From contig CAMVGT010000020.1 of NCBI GenBank assembly GCA_947167125.1, forward strand, positions 1 to 38,757: 38,757 nucleotides of DNA, in the 5' to 3' direction. Shown here one piece after another: positions 12,725 through 38,672 of this stretch; within the stretch, counting starts at the first letter, position 1, and every line of letters begins with the position of its first letter. The DNA is from an uncultured Erysipelotrichaceae bacterium. Its GTDB lineage: Bacteria > Bacillota_I > Bacilli_A > Erysipelotrichales > Erysipelotrichaceae. A program made the position numbers and the translations under genes. The notes under the pieces are model-generated. The model saw only the letters and a list, made by a program, of their open reading frames with translations. It was not told where the DNA came from and ran no database searches.

Positions 12725-12737
12725 AAGTTTAACGCGT

Positions 12738-12962
12738 TGACGGGGAACAGTAATTTCGGATTGTAAAGCCAGAAAGACAGTGGATGATGAGAACTGTCAC
12801 ATGAAGAAATGAATCCACCCCTGAGTGAAAGTAATGACTTCCGGTCTGGCGGCCGTTATCGCCGAATGAAGTGGCTCATAAATGTTTCACGTGAAACATT
12901 TTGAACAAAAAGGGTGGCACCGCGATTCACATCGTCCCTTTACAGGACGATGTTTTATTTTT
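12738..12962 (+). promoter_or_regulatory. T-box riboswitch (tRNA-Ser) controlling serS
   Basis: The T-box sequence AGGGTGGCACCGCG lies at 12911-12924. The antiterminator forms by pairing AAAGGG with CCCTTT around 12936-12941, and the competing terminator is CATCGTCC/GGACGATG (12930-12937 and 12945-12952) followed by T-rich sequence. Stem I can be closed by GAC..GGGA (12739-12746) with TTCCGGTC (12839-12846). Its specifier loop contains AGTA on the left and GTGAA-AGT-A on the right, so the specifier is AGT (12830-12832), a serine codon, agreeing with serS. Uncharged tRNA-Ser would favour read-through. A parS site lies in the linker between stem III and the T-box. Confidence 0.9.
12881..12900. 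other. parS: parS centromere site 1 (inside the serS leader)
   Basis: The 16-bp palindrome TGTTTCACGTGAAACA (12883-12898) matches the bacterial parS consensus, and the palindrome extends to 20 bp. ParB would load here. The site is also transcribed as part of the T-box leader, where it could fold as a hairpin. Confidence 0.92.
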
Positions 12963-14373: not shown

Positions 14374-14402
14374 TTGTATAATTAATCAAAATCCTATACA
14401 AT
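14374..14402 (+). promoter_or_regulatory. Promoter of the SRP RNA
   Basis: TTGTAT (14374-14379), a 17-base spacer, and TACAAT (14397-14402), which would start transcription at about 14408. A separate TATAAT at 14377-14382 has no -35 partner. Confidence 0.6.
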
Positions 14403-14404
14403 AA

Positions 14405-14489
14405 GACACGGCACAGCAAACATGGATAGAATCTGGTCAGGACCGGAAGGTAGCAGCCATACAACCCTCTGTCTGCGTGTGCCGCTTTT
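14405..14489 (+). ncRNA. ffs: Signal recognition particle RNA, small bacterial type
   Basis: Contains the conserved SRP apical segment GGTCAGGACCGGAAGGTAGC with GCC following, the Ffh-binding hairpin. The ends pair through CGGCACA (14409-14415) and TGTGCCG (14478-14484), followed by a run of six T as terminator. The size of about 80-85 bases indicates the short 4.5S-like form without an Alu domain. It lies between serS and tadA, near dnaX as in other Firmicutes. Confidence 0.92.
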
Positions 14490-14497
14490 TTATATCT

Positions 14498-30166: not shown

Positions 30167-31033
30167 ATGGCACAGTCATCTCAGGCACTGAGAACACGCA
30201 TCAAGTCGGTCAACTCCACCCGCAAGATCACAAAAGCGATGGAGATGATCGCGAATGCGAAGCTGTTCAAGCAGCGCGGCAAGATGGAAGCCAACCGTGA
30301 GTACGCACAGAGACTTCAGGATACGGTTGATGAGATCGTTGAAAAGAATCCCGGTGTGGAAAGCAGATATACAAGAAAGAATTCCGGCGACAGAAAGATG
30401 ACGATCATCTTCTGTTCCGACCTCGGTCTTTGCGGCGGTTACAACGCCAATATCATGAAGTTCGCGAAGGATCATCTCAATCCGGAAGATCCCTGCTATC
30501 TGATCGGAACAGCTCTGACCAGACAGCTGAAGGAGAACGGCTTCAATCTGATCAATGAAGAACCGATGTCCAGTGACAGAGCGACATTTCTGGGAATCAA
30601 GGACGCAGTCAGAACAGGCGTCAAAATGTACCAGAAGGGTGAGATCAGCTGTCTGCAGCTTCTCTATACACGCTTTGTCAACACAATGACATTCCGTCCT
30701 GATTTCGATATTCTTCTTCCCTGCAACCTGACACCGGGTGAAACAAGGACAGTTGAGCAGGAAGAACCGGGAATGCATGTTGAAACACTGTTTGAACCGG
30801 ATCCGGAAACAATTCTGAATGAACTGATTCCAATGATGATCGACAATGTCGCATTCGCGGACTGGATGGAATCCACTACAGCGGAACAGGGCAGCCGCCG
30901 TGTTGCAATGAAAACCGCAACCGATAACGCAGATGAATTGAGCCAGAGCCTGAAGCTTGAATACAACAAGGTAAGACAGGCGAATATCACGCAGGAAATC
31001 ACCGAAATTGTCGGCGGTTCTGCGGCAGTATAG
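30167..31033 (+). CDS. atpG: ATP synthase F1 subunit gamma
   Basis: A 288-residue rotary shaft. The N-terminal helix contains INSTRKITKAMEMIA-like sequence (here VNSTRKITKAMEMIANAKL), a Rossmann-type middle carries DLGLCGGYNANIMK, and the C-terminal helix has SLKLEYNKVRQANITQEITEIVGG, the hallmark end. One base separates it from atpA; AAAGGAG precedes the start. Confidence 0.96.
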   Translation: MAQSSQALRTRIKSVNSTRKITKAMEMIANAKLFKQRGKMEANREYAQRLQDTVDEIVEKNPGVESRYTRKNSGDRKMTIIFCSDLGLCGGYNANIMKFAKDHLNPEDPCYLIGTALTRQLKENGFNLINEEPMSSDRATFLGIKDAVRTGVKMYQKGEISCLQLLYTRFVNTMTFRPDFDILLPCNLTPGETRTVEQEEPGMHVETLFEPDPETILNELIPMMIDNVAFADWMESTTAEQGSRRVAMKTATDNADELSQSLKLEYNKVRQANITQEITEIVGGSAAV

Positions 31034-31045
31034 GAAAGAAGGTAA

Positions 31046-32841
<1,796 letters not shown>

Positions 32842-32854
32842 TCAAGCATCATAT

Positions 32855-32889
32855 AAAAGGGATTGCCGGACCGGCAATCCCTTTTAATA
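32855..32889. terminator. Convergent terminator between atpC and the LysR gene
   Basis: Perfect 15-bp stem AAAAGGGATTGCCGG/CCGGCAATCCCTTTT (32855-32869 and 32871-32885) with a single-base centre. The A- and T-rich ends on both sides let it serve both strands, which end within 70 bases of each other. Confidence 0.85.
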
Positions 32890-32906: not shown

Positions 32907-33875
32907 TCAGAAGACATACGGATGCTTGTTCAGAGTATACGGATAGCATTCAATAAATACTTCATAGAAAGCTTTCATGGCTTTTGATATGTAATGATTT
33001 TCCGACATGATCATTTCAAATTTTCTTGCGGTCAGATCAGAATCAGGCTTGAAGAACAGTACATCCTCACTGCTGGATGTCACAAGATGATCCGAAATAA
33101 ACGCAATCCCGAGACCGGCACAGGAAAGATGCCATGCGGTCGCAAGCTGATTCACCTGCATCACAACTTTGGGCTCCAGGTTTTCTTCCGCAAACATTTT
33201 TGTGCTTCTTTCATAAAGGTTATTTCCCGGGGAAAGAAGGATGAAGGGAAGATGCACAAAGGAAGAAAGCTTTACGGAAGGAACATGATCATCCAGATGC
33301 TTCAGATTCATAATATCCTTATTCGTCATTGCGGCATTTCTGAGCGATTCAGGAAGATCGAATGTTTTGGGTACACTCAGCAGAACACGGTCTTCAAAAC
33401 AAGGAATTCTGTAGAAAGGATCTTTCGAAGAAAGACCGGCATGAAATGCAATATCAATCCGGTGCTCCTTTAACAAATCCACCAGAACATGCGACCCGGC
33501 TTCCTGCAGATGCAGATGAATGCCCGGGTATTTTTTCTGATAGGCGACAATGACCCGCGGAAGAATATAGGAATTGAAATAATTCGTTCCGCCGATCGTC
33601 AGTGATCCCGCCTTCAGAGAAGAAAGATCATTCAGCTGTTTCTCCAGCTCTGTTTCAAGATCCCGGATTTCCCTGTATTTGCGGATATAGAGTTCTCCGG
33701 CTTCTGTGAGCTGGAGTTTTTTGCTGGAGCGGTCAAAGATCTGTGCTCCTATTTTTTCTTCCGTTCTTTTTACGGCAAGACTGAGTGCCGGCTGGGTAAT
33801 ATACAGCTCTTCCGCCGCTTTGGAAAAGCTGCCGTTTTTATAAACCGACCAGATATATTTCATTTCCTGTTCCAT
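32907..33875 (-). CDS. LysR-family transcriptional regulator
   Basis: A 322-residue regulator: winged helix-turn-helix at residues 3-60 (NGSFSKAAEELYITQPALSLAVKRTEE) and a periplasmic-binding-like effector domain from about 90 to 310, which starts LTIGGTNYFNSYILP. Divergent from the dehydratase-esterase-permease operon, the usual arrangement for a LysR activator of its neighbour. The effector cannot be read from sequence. The ATG at 33875 lacks a clear Shine-Dalgarno. The downstream end converges on the atp operon. Confidence 0.94.
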   Translation of the reverse strand: MEQEMKYIWSVYKNGSFSKAAEELYITQPALSLAVKRTEEKIGAQIFDRSSKKLQLTEAGELYIRKYREIRDLETELEKQLNDLSSLKAGSLTIGGTNYFNSYILPRVIVAYQKKYPGIHLHLQEAGSHVLVDLLKEHRIDIAFHAGLSSKDPFYRIPCFEDRVLLSVPKTFDLPESLRNAAMTNKDIMNLKHLDDHVPSVKLSSFVHLPFILLSPGNNLYERSTKMFAEENLEPKVVMQVNQLATAWHLSCAGLGIAFISDHLVTSSSEDVLFFKPDSDLTARKFEMIMSENHYISKAMKAFYEVFIECYPYTLNKHPYVF

Positions 33876-34005
33876 ACATTCACATATAAATTCAATTAAT
33901 AGATTTATATTTTCTATAAATTTTATATTAATTCAAATGAATGCTATTTTCTAGGTGTAAAGAGATTGATTCCGGAAATATCTCAAAGAATTCAGGAGGA
34001 AACAT
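33876..34005. promoter_or_regulatory. Divergent control region with candidate LysR operator
   Basis: A very AT-rich 130-base gap. A perfect inverted repeat, ATTTATA-N5-TATAAAT (33903-33921), contains the T-N11-A pattern of LysR sites. A second small one, ATTCA-AA-TGAAT (33931-33942), is nearby. A weak promoter toward the dehydratase is TTTATA (33922-33927) with TATTTT (33945-33950), 17 bases apart, placing the large repeat just upstream of -35 as expected for an activator. AGGAGG lies before the dehydratase start. Confidence 0.55.
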
Positions 34006-35517
34006 ATGAAGGTCAACGCATTGATGATGGATCCGACCGACAATGTTGTCACAACGATTACAGAAATCAAAGCCGGTGAGCAGATCATATACCGCAATGG
34101 TGATGAATATAAGGAACTGACAGCAGTCAATGACATTCCTTACTGCCACAAAGCAGCGCTTACGGATCTTGCAAAGGGTGACAAGGTCATCAAATACGGT
34201 GAAAGTCTCGGTGAAGTAAACGAAGAGATCAGAACCGGTGAATGGGTGGCTGACCACAATCTGTTCAGCGTACCGCGTGATTATGACAGTGAACTTGCGG
34301 ATGACACATTTGAAATGTGCGCAAAGCAGTCGGCAAGCAGAAAAGACAGAGAAGGATTCAGGTTCTGGGGCTACCGCAGAGCGGAAGGAAGACCCGGCAT
34401 CCGGAATCATGTGCTGATTCTGCCGACATGCGCGTGCGGAAGCGAGAGCTGCCGGATTGTCGCAAGCCAGGTAAGAGGTGCAGTGAACATTGTCTTCAAC
34501 ACCGGATGTTCGGATGTGGCCGCAAATACAGAAATGAGCCAGAAGGTTCTGACCGGATTTGCCTGCAACCCCAATGTGTACGGTGTTGTCATTATCGGTC
34601 TTGGATGTGAAACAGTCCCGCATAACAAACTGCGTGAAAAGATTCAGAAGATGACAAGCAAGCCGGTTGTCTCCTTCGGAATTCAGGATGAGGGCGGAAC
34701 ATTAAAAACGATTGAAAAAGCAGTCAGAGCAGCCCGTGACATGGCGATGGAAGCAGGAATGCAGCAGAAGGAACTCTTCGATGTTTCCGAATTCTTCCTC
34801 GGCATTGAATGCGGCGGATCAGACGCGACTTCAGGTATTGCGTCAAACCCTGCAGTCGGTGAAATGAGCGACATCCTGGTCGACATGGGTGCCACTTCCA
34901 TGATGAGCGAATCCATTGAATGGATCGGCGGCGAACATGTTCTTGCAAAGCGTGCCGCAGACAAGGAAGTCCATGATCAGATCATCGAAGTATGCCGCGC
35001 ATATGAAGATCATCTCAAAGCAGCCGGTCAGGACTGCAGAGCCGGTCAGCCGACTCCCGGCAATAAAGCTGGCGGACTTTCCACTCTGGATGAAAAGAGT
35101 CTTGGATGTATCCGCAAAGGCGGCACAAGACCGATCGTGGAAGTTCTTGAACAGGCACAGCGTCCGACCAAAAAAGGCGCGATTGTTATGGATACAGCAG
35201 GCTACGATATTTCTTCCGTCACTTCAATGGTTGCGGCAGGATGCCAGGCTGTCATCTTTACAACCGGCAGAGGAACGCCGACCGGAAACGCAATTGTACC
35301 GGTGCTGAAAGTAACTGCCAATGAAAGAACCTATCAGAAGATGGAAGACAACATGGATGTCGATCTCAGCCCGATCGTAAGAGGAGAAAAGACATACCAG
35401 GAGATGGGTGAAGAATTAGTCAATGTGATGGAGAACATCTGCAGCGGAAAAATGACAAAGGCGGAAGCGTTCGGCTTCTCCGACATCGCTGTCGATCACG
35501 TCTGCAGATACGTATAA
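34006..35517 (+). CDS. UxaA-family hydroxy-acid dehydratase (altronate/galactarate/sulfolactate type)
   Basis: A 503-residue fused enzyme of the UxaA/GarD/SuyAB family, which removes water (or sulfite) from sugar acids using a metal. The N-terminal SAF domain (residues 1-85) has the metal-ligand His48 in PYCHKAAL. The main domain begins GFRFWGYRRAEGRPGIRNHVLILPTCACGS, with later GLGCETVPHNKL, ECGGSDATSGIASNPAVG, and GGTRPIVEVLE. The length fits UxaA (about 500) slightly better than GarD. The substrate cannot be settled. AGGAGG precedes the start, and the esterase follows after 24 bases. Confidence 0.88.
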   Translation: MKVNALMMDPTDNVVTTITEIKAGEQIIYRNGDEYKELTAVNDIPYCHKAALTDLAKGDKVIKYGESLGEVNEEIRTGEWVADHNLFSVPRDYDSELADDTFEMCAKQSASRKDREGFRFWGYRRAEGRPGIRNHVLILPTCACGSESCRIVASQVRGAVNIVFNTGCSDVAANTEMSQKVLTGFACNPNVYGVVIIGLGCETVPHNKLREKIQKMTSKPVVSFGIQDEGGTLKTIEKAVRAARDMAMEAGMQQKELFDVSEFFLGIECGGSDATSGIASNPAVGEMSDILVDMGATSMMSESIEWIGGEHVLAKRAADKEVHDQIIEVCRAYEDHLKAAGQDCRAGQPTPGNKAGGLSTLDEKSLGCIRKGGTRPIVEVLEQAQRPTKKGAIVMDTAGYDISSVTSMVAAGCQAVIFTTGRGTPTGNAIVPVLKVTANERTYQKMEDNMDVDLSPIVRGEKTYQEMGEELVNVMENICSGKMTKAEAFGFSDIAVDHVCRYV

Positions 35518-35541
35518 AGAGATAATCCGGAGGAACCAGCA

Positions 35542-37269
35542 ATGATGGAAATTCAGAAGTTCCCGGCAAATATGGGGGAGCTGGAAATTGATTTCAAACA
35601 TCCGAACCGTGCATTAATCAGCGGTCTCTACGAAGAAACACTCACAGCAGCAGGAAAGCAGAGAACCTTCCTTACCTATATTCCTGAAAACCAGGAATAC
35701 TGCCGTCCCTGCCTTGTTACAGCAATTCCTTCCGGTGAAAATCCGGCAGAATGGATCGAAACTTCCGGAATGAAAGCATTCGCGGACAGAAATGAACTGT
35801 TCCTGCATATTGCATACTGCGATGGTGAAAAATGGGATAACAGCGGAGCTGACGCGGAATATATCAACGGCGTCTATGTGAAGATCCAGGCACGTGATTA
35901 TTACATTACAATGCAGGACAACATTTACCTCTGCGCATTCGGCGACGCGTCATTTGCGGCTCATCAGGCCGCAAAGAGAATGGCCAGCGAATGGAGCGGA
36001 ATGATGACCTTCGGAGATCTTGCGGAAGATCTGAGATTTGACCGCAATATCGAAAGAGGCGAAGAAGATCAGGGGCAGCTGGAACTGAAGATTCAGGGAT
36101 CCGCTGCACAGCTTCCGGTCTGGATGCTGGTATCTTCTTACGAAGGAAACAACAAAGAAGCAGCTGAATACTGGAAAGAACAGAATCATGTCAAAGGAGA
36201 ACCGTACTCCGGACAGGGCTGTGATTATATCTGGGCACCTGATCCTGTCAGACGCCTGAATGAAATCAATGAAGAACATATTTCACAGGTCCGCGTTGCC
36301 GTATCCGAAAAGGGATGCACAGCGGAAGATCTGGAAAATGCTTGGGGCTATATCCGTCTTGCCAGACGCCACCGCGGTCAGGGCGGCAAGTGCCTGAGAT
36401 ACTACAAGGATCCGATCGACTGCGGCGCAGTGCTGAAAACCATGGAAGTCGACGGCATGACACGCACCTGGTATGAATATGTACCTGCTTCCTGCACACC
36501 GGATCAGAAGTGGCCGCTGGTTGTCACAATGCACGGCAGAGGCGGAAGCGCGGAAACATTCTTCGATCTCAGCGGTATTTCAGTTGTGGCTGAAGAAAGA
36601 AAATTCATTGCGGTTATCCCCCAGGCAGGAATTCACCAGCAGAAGAAAAACGGTCTGCGCAATGTCCTGCTGTGGTGCGGAGAGTATAAAGGACAGCCGG
36701 TTGATGATGTGAAATTCATCCGTGAAATGATTGCGGACATCGAAACACGCCTTCCGGTTGATCACAGCAGAATCTATGCATGCGGTCAGAGTTCCGGCGG
36801 AATGATGAGCGATGTTCTGGGATACAGTGCCGGCGATCTCTTCGCGGCAGTCGCTCCCTGGTCCGCACTCCGCTCACCGAGCCGTATGTGCGGCACATTC
36901 GAAGAGAGTGAAGTGAAGACTCCGACCATGTGGATCTATGGCGACAAAGACTTCCTGTGCGCAGGAAAAGGAGAAGATCCCGATCTTCCTTTCCCGCTCG
37001 ATCAGGAATTAAGAGATGTATTTGCGGAAAAGCTGGAACATATGAATCTCGATATTCATAAGCAGCTCCTCCATGAAACATATCCGATCTCATGGTGCAC
37101 ATTCACCAACGATGAAGGTGTTCCTCTGGCTGTCATCGGAAAAGTGGACAACATGGTCCATGCCAATTATCCCGAACTCAGCTGGATCAGCTACGACCAG
37201 TTCCTCAGCCGCTATTCCAAAGATGAAAACGGCAATCTCTATTACTGCGGAAGAAAAGTGAATTTATAA
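35542..37269 (+). CDS. Tandem alpha/beta-hydrolase esterase (PHB-depolymerase/feruloyl-esterase-like)
   Basis: A 575-residue cytoplasmic protein (no signal peptide) with two related halves. The C-terminal half (about 310-575) is an active-looking esterase of the PHB-depolymerase/LpqC group: TRTWYEYVP, oxyanion-type VVTMHGRGGSAETFF, nucleophile Ser417 in CGQSSGGMMS, likely acid Asp470 in YGDKDFL, and His540 in NMVHANYPE. The N-terminal half (about 35-210) repeats the layout (QRTFLTYIP, a WIETSGMKAFADRNELFL stretch, LCAFGDASFAAHQAAKR, LPVWMLVSSYEG) but the elbow is GDASF, without the nucleophile serine, so it is probably inactive. GGAGGA at 35529-35534 supports the ATG at 35542. Confidence 0.88.
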   Translation: MMEIQKFPANMGELEIDFKHPNRALISGLYEETLTAAGKQRTFLTYIPENQEYCRPCLVTAIPSGENPAEWIETSGMKAFADRNELFLHIAYCDGEKWDNSGADAEYINGVYVKIQARDYYITMQDNIYLCAFGDASFAAHQAAKRMASEWSGMMTFGDLAEDLRFDRNIERGEEDQGQLELKIQGSAAQLPVWMLVSSYEGNNKEAAEYWKEQNHVKGEPYSGQGCDYIWAPDPVRRLNEINEEHISQVRVAVSEKGCTAEDLENAWGYIRLARRHRGQGGKCLRYYKDPIDCGAVLKTMEVDGMTRTWYEYVPASCTPDQKWPLVVTMHGRGGSAETFFDLSGISVVAEERKFIAVIPQAGIHQQKKNGLRNVLLWCGEYKGQPVDDVKFIREMIADIETRLPVDHSRIYACGQSSGGMMSDVLGYSAGDLFAAVAPWSALRSPSRMCGTFEESEVKTPTMWIYGDKDFLCAGKGEDPDLPFPLDQELRDVFAEKLEHMNLDIHKQLLHETYPISWCTFTNDEGVPLAVIGKVDNMVHANYPELSWISYDQFLSRYSKDENGNLYYCGRKVNL

Positions 37270-37286
37270 GCGAAAGGTGAATCAAA

Positions 37287-38612
37287 ATGAATACACAGCT
37301 CATCATCTGTCTGGCAATCAGTGTTATGGTCATTGCCGGCTATATCTGGAACAAACTCTCTGTCGGAACTGTCGGATACCTCGGTATCGTCCTGTTCCTG
37401 ATTACCGGATGTATTTCTCCCAAAGACGTTCTCGGCAACATCGGAAATGCCAACCTGATCATGATCTCCAGCATGTTCATCATCTCGGAAGGCTTCAAGA
37501 GAACACAGGCAATCCGTCTGGTTGCGGATACCGTCCGTAAGATTTCCAAGGGATCCATGACCATGGTCATGTTAGGATTCACACTCGCTTCCGTGATTGC
37601 CGCAACATTCACAGGCTCCGCAGTCGCTGCATTCTGTATCGTTGCCCCGATCGTAACTGCTACATGCGAAGAAATGAATATCTCCGTTTCCAAAGCAATC
37701 TTCTCTGTCGGTCTTACCTGCATCGCCGCATGCGGAATCATCCCGGTCGGCGGTTCCCTGTCCATGCTCGCTGAACTCAACGGCTATGTCGCAGCCAACG
37801 GATATGAACAGTACACACTGGCTGTTATGGATCTCTTCAAGAGCAGAGGCCTCAGCCTTGTCGCATTGATTATCTATTCAACATTCCTCGGCTTCCGCTT
37901 CGCTCCGGAAAAGCCGGTTGTCGCTACAACCGACAGCGATGATCTCTCCAAGAGAGTTGCTCATCACGAAAAGCTGAACAGCACACGTGAAACAATCGCA
38001 ATCGTCGTATTCTGCCTTGTCACACTCCTGCTGGTCTTCAACACACAGCTCAACGCACTTCTGACTTCTGCCGGCATTCAGGCTCTGGCATCGTGGGAAA
38101 TTGCATTCATCGGCGCAGTCATTCTGGTTGCGACAGGCGTTCTCTCTTCCAAAGAAGCATGCGGCTCCATTCCGATTGACCTCTGCTTAATGGTTGTAGG
38201 CGGTCTCTGCATGGGTACAGCACTTGCCAACACAGGTGCCGGTGATCTGATCGGCGGTGCAATCGCGAATGTCGCTACCAAGCTGGGCAATCCGTACCTT
38301 ATCGGCGCAGTCTTCTATCTGATTCCGTTCTTACTGACACAGGTTATGCAGAACAGAACCGTCATGGCTGTCTTCGCTCCGATCGCAATTCTTGCCTGCA
38401 AGAGCATGGGCGTTGACTGCACAGGTCCTCTGATGCTGGTTGCAAGCGCATGCTGCACAGCATTCATGACACCGATGGCCACTCCGACCGTACCGCTTGT
38501 CATGGGAATCGGCGGATATGATATGAGTTCCAACCTCAAGCAGTCACTGCTTCCGGCACTGATCCTCTCAGTTGTCAATATCTTCTGGATCATGACAGTC
38601 TATCCGCTTTGA
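37287..38612 (+). CDS. SLC13/DASS-type anion permease
   Basis: A 441-residue polytopic membrane protein with 10 to 12 hydrophobic segments and a central cytoplasmic loop (about 205-230, KPVVATTDSDDLSKRVAHHEK). The two similar halves and the conserved small-residue loops (FTGSAVAAFCIVAPIV near 110, FMTPMATPTVPLVMG near 395-410) fit the SLC13/CitM/ArsB ion-transporter group, secondary carriers for di- or tricarboxylates, usually with Na+. It probably brings in the substrate of the two preceding enzymes. AAGGTGA precedes the start; a terminator follows. Confidence 0.9.
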   Translation: MNTQLIICLAISVMVIAGYIWNKLSVGTVGYLGIVLFLITGCISPKDVLGNIGNANLIMISSMFIISEGFKRTQAIRLVADTVRKISKGSMTMVMLGFTLASVIAATFTGSAVAAFCIVAPIVTATCEEMNISVSKAIFSVGLTCIAACGIIPVGGSLSMLAELNGYVAANGYEQYTLAVMDLFKSRGLSLVALIIYSTFLGFRFAPEKPVVATTDSDDLSKRVAHHEKLNSTRETIAIVVFCLVTLLLVFNTQLNALLTSAGIQALASWEIAFIGAVILVATGVLSSKEACGSIPIDLCLMVVGGLCMGTALANTGAGDLIGGAIANVATKLGNPYLIGAVFYLIPFLLTQVMQNRTVMAVFAPIAILACKSMGVDCTGPLMLVASACCTAFMTPMATPTVPLVMGIGGYDMSSNLKQSLLPALILSVVNIFWIMTVYPL

Positions 38613-38633: not shown

Positions 38634-38672
38634 CGAAAAAAACACCTGTCAGCTGATGACAGGTGTTTTTTG
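38634..38672. terminator. Bidirectional terminator between convergent genes
   Basis: Stem AACACCTGTCA/TGACAGGTGTT (38641-38651 and 38657-38667) with a 5-base loop, A-run on the left and T-run on the right, so it serves both strands. Confidence 0.9.

What the first reader, a model, noticed from the sequence alone, without database searches (positions are those of the whole stretch)
32907..38612. LysR-controlled operon combining a UxaA-family dehydratase, a tandem-domain intracellular esterase and an anion permease
The sequence shows a divergent LysR gene, an AT-rich inverted-repeat control region, then three tightly spaced genes with good ribosome sites and a terminator. UxaA/GarD/SuyAB enzymes dehydrate sugar acids or cleave sulfolactate, and SLC13-type carriers import organic anions. 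I infer a pathway for an esterified hydroxy acid (for example an acylated sugar acid) taken up intact, hydrolysed inside, and dehydrated. Kinase and aldolase steps are not in the window and could lie elsewhere. I do not know of a described pathway with exactly this trio.
Basis: partly seen in the sequence, partly recalled or inferred. Interest (0 to 1): 0.7.

Follow-up and report, generated by a model that had tools for sequence, protein, structure and literature searches.

The report
Gut operon for acylated plant acids
A small gene cluster shared by distantly related gut bacteria most likely imports a plant acid carrying an attached ester group, cuts the ester inside the cell and turns the freed acid (probably tartrate) into central-metabolism fuel, which would name candidate genes for a step in plant-food breakdown.

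Summary
Of 79 public loci holding the esterase, 44 carry dehydratase and permease within five genes, in Bacillota families and Spirochaetota. The dehydratase belongs to a tight clade without a characterised member, outside E. coli UxaA and GarD and a SuyB, and keeps the four-cysteine site that SuyB lacks. In two sister genomes it is paired with a DctA-type C4-dicarboxylate carrier instead of the esterase, which lies elsewhere there; its sister clade sits with threonate-type genes. That points to tartrate, dehydrated to oxaloacetate. The esterase looks cytosolic, with a dead and a live alpha/beta-hydrolase domain, the live one like acetylxylan and feruloyl esterases. Other branches sit with DcuC and malic enzyme, or with GarD/GudD-like genes. 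An enoate-reductase-like flavoenzyme lies near 18 of 79. Best reading: import and catabolism of acyl-tartrates such as caftaric acid. Context evidence only. Against: the flavoenzyme does not track the esterase across 60 related genomes (P 0.19), and the dehydratase also occurs without the esterase.

The parts
32907..33875 (-). LysR-family regulator, divergent
   Evidence: PF00126 71 bits and PF03466 109.1 bits, both over cut-off; a LysR gene lies within five genes of the esterase in 48 of 79 loci
33876..34005 (.). AT-rich divergent control region, dyad ATATAAAT-N11-ATTTATAT from 33884
   Evidence: 23% G+C, partly conserved block in relatives; weak evidence
34006..35517 (+). UxaA/GarD-superfamily dehydratase (503 aa), proposed tartrate dehydratase
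   Evidence: PF20629 312.2 bits, PF04295 126.7 bits; below the galactarate dehydratase equivalog cut-off (295.4 against 730.85); own clade; four-Cys site C144, C168, C201, C269
35542..37269 (+). tandem-domain serine esterase (575 aa), no leader seen; N domain inactive copy, C domain catalytic (S417, D470, H540)
37287..38612 (+). CitMHS/DASS-type anion permease (441 aa)
   Evidence: PF03600 138.7 bits over cut-off; TIGR00785 90.2 under cut-off 198.6; 38.9 bits at best to VcINDY-type chains
38636..38671 (+). terminator-like hairpin with T run
   Evidence: read by eye from the sequence; not listed by the scan

Best explanation
The operon feeds on an acylated hydroxydicarboxylate, most likely a hydroxycinnamoyl tartrate of plant food (caftaric, coutaric, chicoric acid type). 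Proposed steps: (1) the DASS/CitMHS-type permease imports the ester as a dicarboxylate; (2) the cytosolic tandem-domain serine esterase (S417/D470/H540) releases the acyl acid and free tartrate; (3) the four-Cys UxaA/GarD-type dehydratase turns tartrate into oxaloacetate; (4) malic-enzyme- or RraA-type proteins, encoded next door in some relatives, take the C4 acid on; (5) an enoate-reductase-like flavoenzyme, next door in some relatives and on another contig of this genome, may reduce the freed cinnamate; (6) the LysR protein switches the operon. Shown: gene content, families, conservation, domain structure (predicted model). Inferred: substrate, direction of transport, order of steps, inducer.
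For: Trio conserved: 44 of 79 esterase loci have dehydratase and permease within five genes; among 35 close-family loci with at least 5 kb on both sides, 27 have both. Among 60 related genomes all 6 with the dehydratase clade also have the esterase, which 9 have at E 1e-100 or better (counted; genomes are kin, so not independent). In G018 and G019 a copy of the clade's dehydratase (83% identity) is in a LysR-dehydratase-DctA unit; G018 has a second, partial copy on another contig whose context I did not read. Sister clade (SH-aLRT 99) sits with threonate-kinase-like (3) or PdxA-like (1) genes in the four of 12 members annotated; three more have a gene of the PdxA-like cluster by BLAST. Dehydratases of this superfamily act on altronate, galactarate, idonate and arabinonate (PMC6336799, passages), which I read as 2,3-dihydroxy acids; of C4 dicarboxylates that leaves tartrate (inference). 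Esterase branches track partner genes: six DcuC-linked esterases form one clade, SH-aLRT 98, one change; all 7 DcuC loci lack dehydratase and permease, 3 have malic enzyme; distant branch member L107 lies with GarD (771.7, over cut-off 730.85), GudD-like and aldolase-like genes. Catalytic domain nearest to acetylxylan, PHB and feruloyl esterases. OYE/enoate-reductase-like gene near in 18 of 79 loci. No leader-like or membrane segment in the esterase by a hydropathy count. E. coli ttdR-ttdA-ttdB-ttdT has the same layout of LysR, dehydratase and anion carrier.
Against: No activity or metabolite evidence. The DctA argument rests on two sister genomes plus two trio loci (L063, L085) that also have a DctA gene. 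Three Lachnospirales genomes (G549, G512, G605) have the clade's dehydratase and no esterase match, so the dehydratase works without it. Over 60 related genomes the OYE orthologue does not track the esterase: 4 of 9 esterase genomes against 10 of 51 others, P 0.19. The window's own locus has no OYE, malic enzyme or DUF3237 gene beside it (contig ends at 38757). CitMHS-type genes beside some members (5 of 79) fit tricarboxylates too. The permease and regulator share little sequence with TtdT and TtdR. The genome has a TtdAB/fumarase-like pair with a malic-enzyme-like gene behind it, which could be a tartrate dehydratase or a fumarase.
Confidence: 0.42

Rival explanations
1. Same logic, other acid: the operon uses acyl esters of a C6 aldarate or another sugar acid, and the dehydratase is a galactarate/altronate-like enzyme.
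For: The superfamily is UxaA/GarD. A distant branch member of the esterase family lies in a galactarate/glucarate-type operon (L107).
Against: The window dehydratase scores 295.4 against a galactarate cut-off of 730.85 and lies far from GarD and UxaA in the tree. With the reference set used, no GarL, GarK, GarR, GudD or DHDPS-type gene was found within five genes of any esterase except at L107.
Confidence: 0.2
2. Esterase and dehydratase serve two different compounds that share an inducer: the dehydratase handles a free acid, the esterase clears an unrelated ester.
For: The dehydratase occurs without the esterase (G549, G512, G605; alone on a Prevotella plasmid), and the esterase without the dehydratase nearby (DcuC loci; Solobacterium loci L043, L058).
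Against: Co-conservation in two gene orders and across phyla; all 6 dehydratase-clade genomes among 60 relatives also carry the esterase.
Confidence: 0.18
3. The dehydratase acts on threonate/erythronate or a close C4 monocarboxylate, and the ester is of that acid.
For: Sister clade sits with threonate-kinase-like and PdxA-like genes.
Against: Carriers of dicarboxylate type (DctA, DcuC, CitMHS/DASS superfamily) accompany the module; no kinase accompanies the trio, and only one PdxA-like hit, 701 bases away at L088.
Confidence: 0.1
4. A sulfonate pathway: the dehydratase-like protein is a sulfolactate sulfo-lyase.
For: SuyAB is in the superfamily and has two chains, as the map shows in 16 of the 44 trio loci.
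Against: All four cysteines of the site that the SuyB reference has mostly lost (three of four changed) are present; SuyB from an hpsN-hpsO locus falls outside the clade (long branch, place unsure).
Confidence: 0.03

Closest known systems
E. coli L-tartrate operon ttdR-ttdA-ttdB-ttdT
   Same: Divergent LysR regulator, dehydratase, anion carrier in one unit; proposed product oxaloacetate
   Different: TtdAB is a fumarase-type enzyme, not UxaA/GarD type; no esterase; carrier and regulator share little sequence
UxaA/GarD superfamily dehydratases (altronate, galactarate, arabinonate, idonate)
   Same: Domains PF04295 and PF20629, four-Cys site
   Different: Separate clade from the references used; C4 context
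CE1-like esterases: feruloyl, acetylxylan and PHB esterases
   Different: Extra inactive N-terminal hydrolase domain, no leader seen; about 21% identity to the best; below the PHB depolymerase cut-off (117 against 150)
Cinnamoyl esterase activity of Oenococcus oeni on caftaric acid (PMC6857119; abstract passages and discussion section read)
   Same: Cell-extract activity that frees caffeate from a tartrate ester; the authors suggest that the acid part may be needed
   Different: Gene not identified there; I did not look for this esterase in O. oeni
Gut gud/gar aldarate pathway (PMC11775122, passages)
   Same: Dehydratase of the same superfamily feeding central metabolism in gut Bacillota; a distant esterase branch member sits in such an operon (L107)
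   Different: No esterase mentioned in the passages seen; uses GarD/GudD, aldolase, GarR

Membership tests
UxaA/GarD superfamily dehydratase | GD_AH second and C-terminal domains over Pfam cut-off | tested here: met
   126.7 against 27.3 and 312.2 against 26.8 bits; the SAF domain is just under (20.8 against 21)
UxaA/GarD superfamily dehydratase | Four conserved cysteines of the iron site (PMC6336799, passages) | tested here: met
   C144, C168, C201, C269 aligned with UxaA, GarD and relatives; the match to the paper's numbering is by my alignment
Galactarate dehydratase (TIGR03248) | Equivalog cut-off | tested here: not met
   295.4 against 730.85
Sulfolactate sulfo-lyase SuyB | Four-Cys site not conserved; clade with SuyB | tested here: not met
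   Site kept in the window protein, three of four positions changed in the SuyB reference; outside clade
Tartrate dehydratase (activity) | Converts tartrate to oxaloacetate | not testable with these tools
   Context only
L-tartrate dehydratase TtdAB (fumarase type) | Fumarase-type alpha/beta subunits | tested here: not met
   Pfam hits of the window protein are GD_AH and SAF domains, none of fumarase type
PHB depolymerase type 1 (NF050058) | Model cut-off | tested here: not met
   117 against 150
CE1-like serine esterase | Alpha/beta-hydrolase fold with Ser-Asp-His triad | tested here: met
Hydroxycinnamoyl (feruloyl) esterase | Hydrolyses hydroxycinnamate esters | not testable with these tools
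   Only fold kinship and neighbouring OYE genes in relatives
DASS anion symporter (TIGR00785) | Model cut-off | tested here: not met
   90.2 against 198.6
Citrate transporter superfamily (PF03600) | Pfam cut-off | tested here: met
   138.7 against 31.9
LysR regulators | HTH_1 and LysR_substrate domains | tested here: met
   71 against 26.6 and 109.1 against 28 bits

The most novel reading that the evidence does not exclude
A previously undescribed family of cytosolic tandem-domain esterases in gut anaerobes that specialises in acyl esters of hydroxydicarboxylic acids, with branches matched to the freed acid: tartrate (a new UxaA/GarD-type tartrate dehydratase), malate (DcuC and malic enzyme) and aldarates (GarD/GudD). 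It would be a missing route by which gut and rumen bacteria take up and consume caftaric, chicoric and phaselic acids whole, with the freed cinnamate reduced by a linked enoate reductase.
Probability: 0.3. Interest if true: 0.72.

Novelty: new variant of a known kind. Interest (0 to 1): 0.55.

Why it matters
Tartrate and malate esters of hydroxycinnamates are common in plant food and forage (recalled), and the Oenococcus paper states that the microbial cinnamoyl esterases characterised by then did not have tartrate esters as recognised substrates (PMC6857119, 2019, discussion section). This module names a candidate esterase gene, carrier and dehydratase together, in named gut isolates among others, so the question becomes directly testable. 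If the dehydratase is a tartrate dehydratase, it is a new activity for the UxaA/GarD superfamily as far as two searches of open-licence papers show (15 of 4,592 papers listed, one paper, listing only).

Tried and rejected
Sulfolactate reading: rejected on the four-Cys site and the tree. Galactarate reading for this branch: below cut-off and away from GarD. TtdT/TtdR homology: only weak matches, 29.6 and 30.4 bits, so I claim the layout, not kinship. Link between OYE orthologue and esterase over 60 related genomes: not significant (P 0.19). Enrichment close to the esterase: DUF3237 not significant (P 0.087), RraA and DctA too few. Literature: no paper found that describes this trio, a UxaA-type tartrate dehydratase or the gene of a tartrate-ester cleaving enzyme (ten searches; open-licence papers only, capped lists; listings and abstract starts seen, passages, one section). 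The GarD structure paper is not held.

First gene maps used a longest-ORF rule and showed long antisense ORFs as genes (clusters c8, c9, c46); these lie opposite OYE, malic enzyme, DUF3237 or DcuC genes in the loci compared. The maps give priority to ORFs that match references and replace them. Counts are within five genes at over 80 bits; one search uses within four genes and other cut-offs. The 18 OYE hits include two of low score (L039 274 bits, L092 159 bits). Loci are related, so the P values overstate independence.

Rows dropped: four duplicate rows before the dehydratase tree (91 to 87), where rows also needed over 300 aligned positions; esterases under 540 aa before the esterase tree (72 rows: 71 of 79 loci plus the window). 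Both trees are quick ones with SH-aLRT support only. The search for related loci kept 79 distinct loci of 107 relatives. The fold search compared mostly residues 240-573; the N-terminal domain was not searched alone. A profile comparison of the esterase with L107 was circular because the alignment held L107; I repeated it with an alignment without it. One structure job and a second protein-database search remained unused.
Full report
What is there. The window is contig C20 of an assembly of 2.87 Mb in 130 contigs; the loci nearest to it come from Erysipelotrichaceae and Solobacterium assemblies, many of them from rumen and gut samples by their titles. Behind ATP synthase genes lie a LysR gene (32907-33875, minus) and, divergent, a UxaA/GarD-type dehydratase (34006-35517), a 575-residue esterase (35542-37269) and a CitMHS/DASS-type permease (37287-38612).

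Is it a unit? A scan of GTDB genomes with an alignment of the esterase gave 79 distinct loci of 107 relatives. With a reference-guided gene map, within five genes of the esterase at over 80 bits: permease in 58 of 79, LysR in 48, dehydratase in 46, an Oxidored_FMN (OYE/enoate-reductase-like) flavoenzyme in 18, DUF3237 in 11, malic enzyme in 9, DcuC in 7, a CitMHS citrate-transporter-like gene in 5, DctA in 2, RraA in 2. Both dehydratase and permease: 44 of 79, of which 39 Bacillota and 5 Spirochaetota; other loci are in part cut by contig ends. Of 35 close-family loci with 5 kb on both sides, 27 have both, 1 has the dehydratase without the permease, 4 have DcuC instead, 3 have neither dehydratase nor DcuC. 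The order is dehydratase-esterase-permease (as here) or dehydratase-permease-esterase, with rarer forms, so the association survives rearrangement. In 16 of the 44 the map shows two dehydratase chains. Among 60 relatives, 6 genomes have the dehydratase clade and all 6 have the esterase, which 9 have at E 1e-100 or better.

The dehydratase. All esterase-linked copies in the tree, except the GarD of L107, form one clade with SH-aLRT 100, 50 of 87 rows, short branches. E. coli UxaA and GarD and a SuyB from an hpsN-hpsO locus lie outside on long branches, so their exact places are unsure. The four cysteines of the iron site reported for the superfamily except SuyAB (PMC6336799, passages) are kept. 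In sister genomes G018 and G019 a copy of the clade's dehydratase stands with a divergent LysR gene and a DctA-type C4-dicarboxylate symporter (PF00375, 384.5 bits for L025); both genomes hold the esterase on other contigs, and G018 has a second, partial dehydratase copy whose context I did not read. Two trio loci also carry a DctA gene (L063, L085). The sister clade (SH-aLRT 99, 12 rows) stands with threonate-kinase-like (3) or PdxA-like (1) genes in the four members annotated, and three more have a gene of the PdxA-like cluster by BLAST. The known members dehydrate altronate, galactarate, idonate and arabinonate, which are 2,3-dihydroxy acids; among C4 dicarboxylates this leaves tartrate, giving oxaloacetate. 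That step is inference. Results that do not fit simply: the clade's dehydratase also occurs in G549, G512 and G605, where no esterase match was found, and alone on a Prevotella plasmid; next to it lie a beta-lactamase-fold hydrolase in G549 and, divergent, an Fe-S protein and an Ldh_2-type (malate/L-lactate dehydrogenase) gene in G512.

The acyl part. The flavoenzyme near 18 of 79 esterases has Oxidored_FMN plus pyridine-nucleotide domains; for the member tested its nearest NCBIfam model is BaiCD, under cut-off (379.7 against 825). Within four genes at 200 bits or more it occurs 17 times against once further out. Enzymes of this kind reduce activated double bonds (recalled), which fits a cinnamate; this is inference. 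Against it: the orthologue is present in 4 of 9 esterase genomes and 10 of 51 others (P 0.19); in the window's genome it lies on another contig (C69, 64% identity), next to a ROK-type gene and gcpE. The acyl group therefore stays open.

Comparison with what is known. The layout of LysR, dehydratase and anion carrier is that of E. coli ttdR-ttdABT, but the dehydratase is of another superfamily and carrier and regulator are not close. Oenococcus oeni cell extracts cleave caftaric acid; the gene was not found, and the authors note that the cinnamoyl esterases characterised by then did not have tartrate esters as recognised substrates (PMC6857119). Gut Bacillota are known to use aldarates through GudD/GarD (PMC11775122, passages). 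My literature searches found no description of this trio (calls listed under tried and rejected).

Verdict. A real, conserved and apparently undescribed catabolic module. An acyl ester of a hydroxydicarboxylate as substrate is supported by context (I put this wider claim at about 0.65); tartrate as the acid is the best single guess; a hydroxycinnamate as the acyl group is plausible and untested.

Noticed in passing
window 30167-32886: ATP synthase gamma and beta (recognised by eye at 30167-31033 and 31049-32446) and a short gene to 32841 are followed by a strong hairpin terminator at 32854-32886 just before the module.
   Followed up: no
window 12728-12942 and 14400-14497: T-box leader and small SRP RNA (Rfam, over gathering score).
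   Followed up: no
L107 5754-17701: Distant esterase paralogue inside an operon-like cluster with GarD (divergent), two GudD-like genes, a DHDPS-family aldolase-like gene and GarR-like genes: a candidate route for acylated aldarates.
   Followed up: partly
L117 11926-13506 (Prevotella sp. E2-28 plasmid): A clade member of the dehydratase (76.5% identity) alone on a sheep-derived Bacteroidota plasmid, beside conjugation genes: a likely transfer between phyla.
   Followed up: partly
L125, L126, L129, L134: Sister clade of UxaA-type dehydratases next to threonate-kinase-like or PdxA-like genes in Lachnospirales, with no characterised member among the references used.
   Followed up: no
L047 14124-16934, L051 4269-5749: A CitMHS-type transporter gene lies between (L047) or after (L051, contig cut) the small and large dehydratase chains.
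   Followed up: no
L166 6672-9677: In G549 the dehydratase is next to a beta-lactamase-fold serine hydrolase instead of the esterase, perhaps a non-homologous replacement.
   Followed up: partly
L063, L066, L068, L072, L075, L077, L081, L092, L093, L102, L103: DUF3237 proteins recur within five genes of the esterase (11 of 79; one more just beyond at L087); function unknown, enrichment not significant.
   Followed up: partly
L109 2057-3211 and L110 11855-12985: Two distant esterases are followed by a D-2-hydroxyacid-dehydrogenase-like gene; might suit esters of aromatic lactates such as rosmarinic acid (speculation).
   Followed up: no
L160 (G005:C45): Two distant esterase paralogues in tandem.
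   Followed up: no
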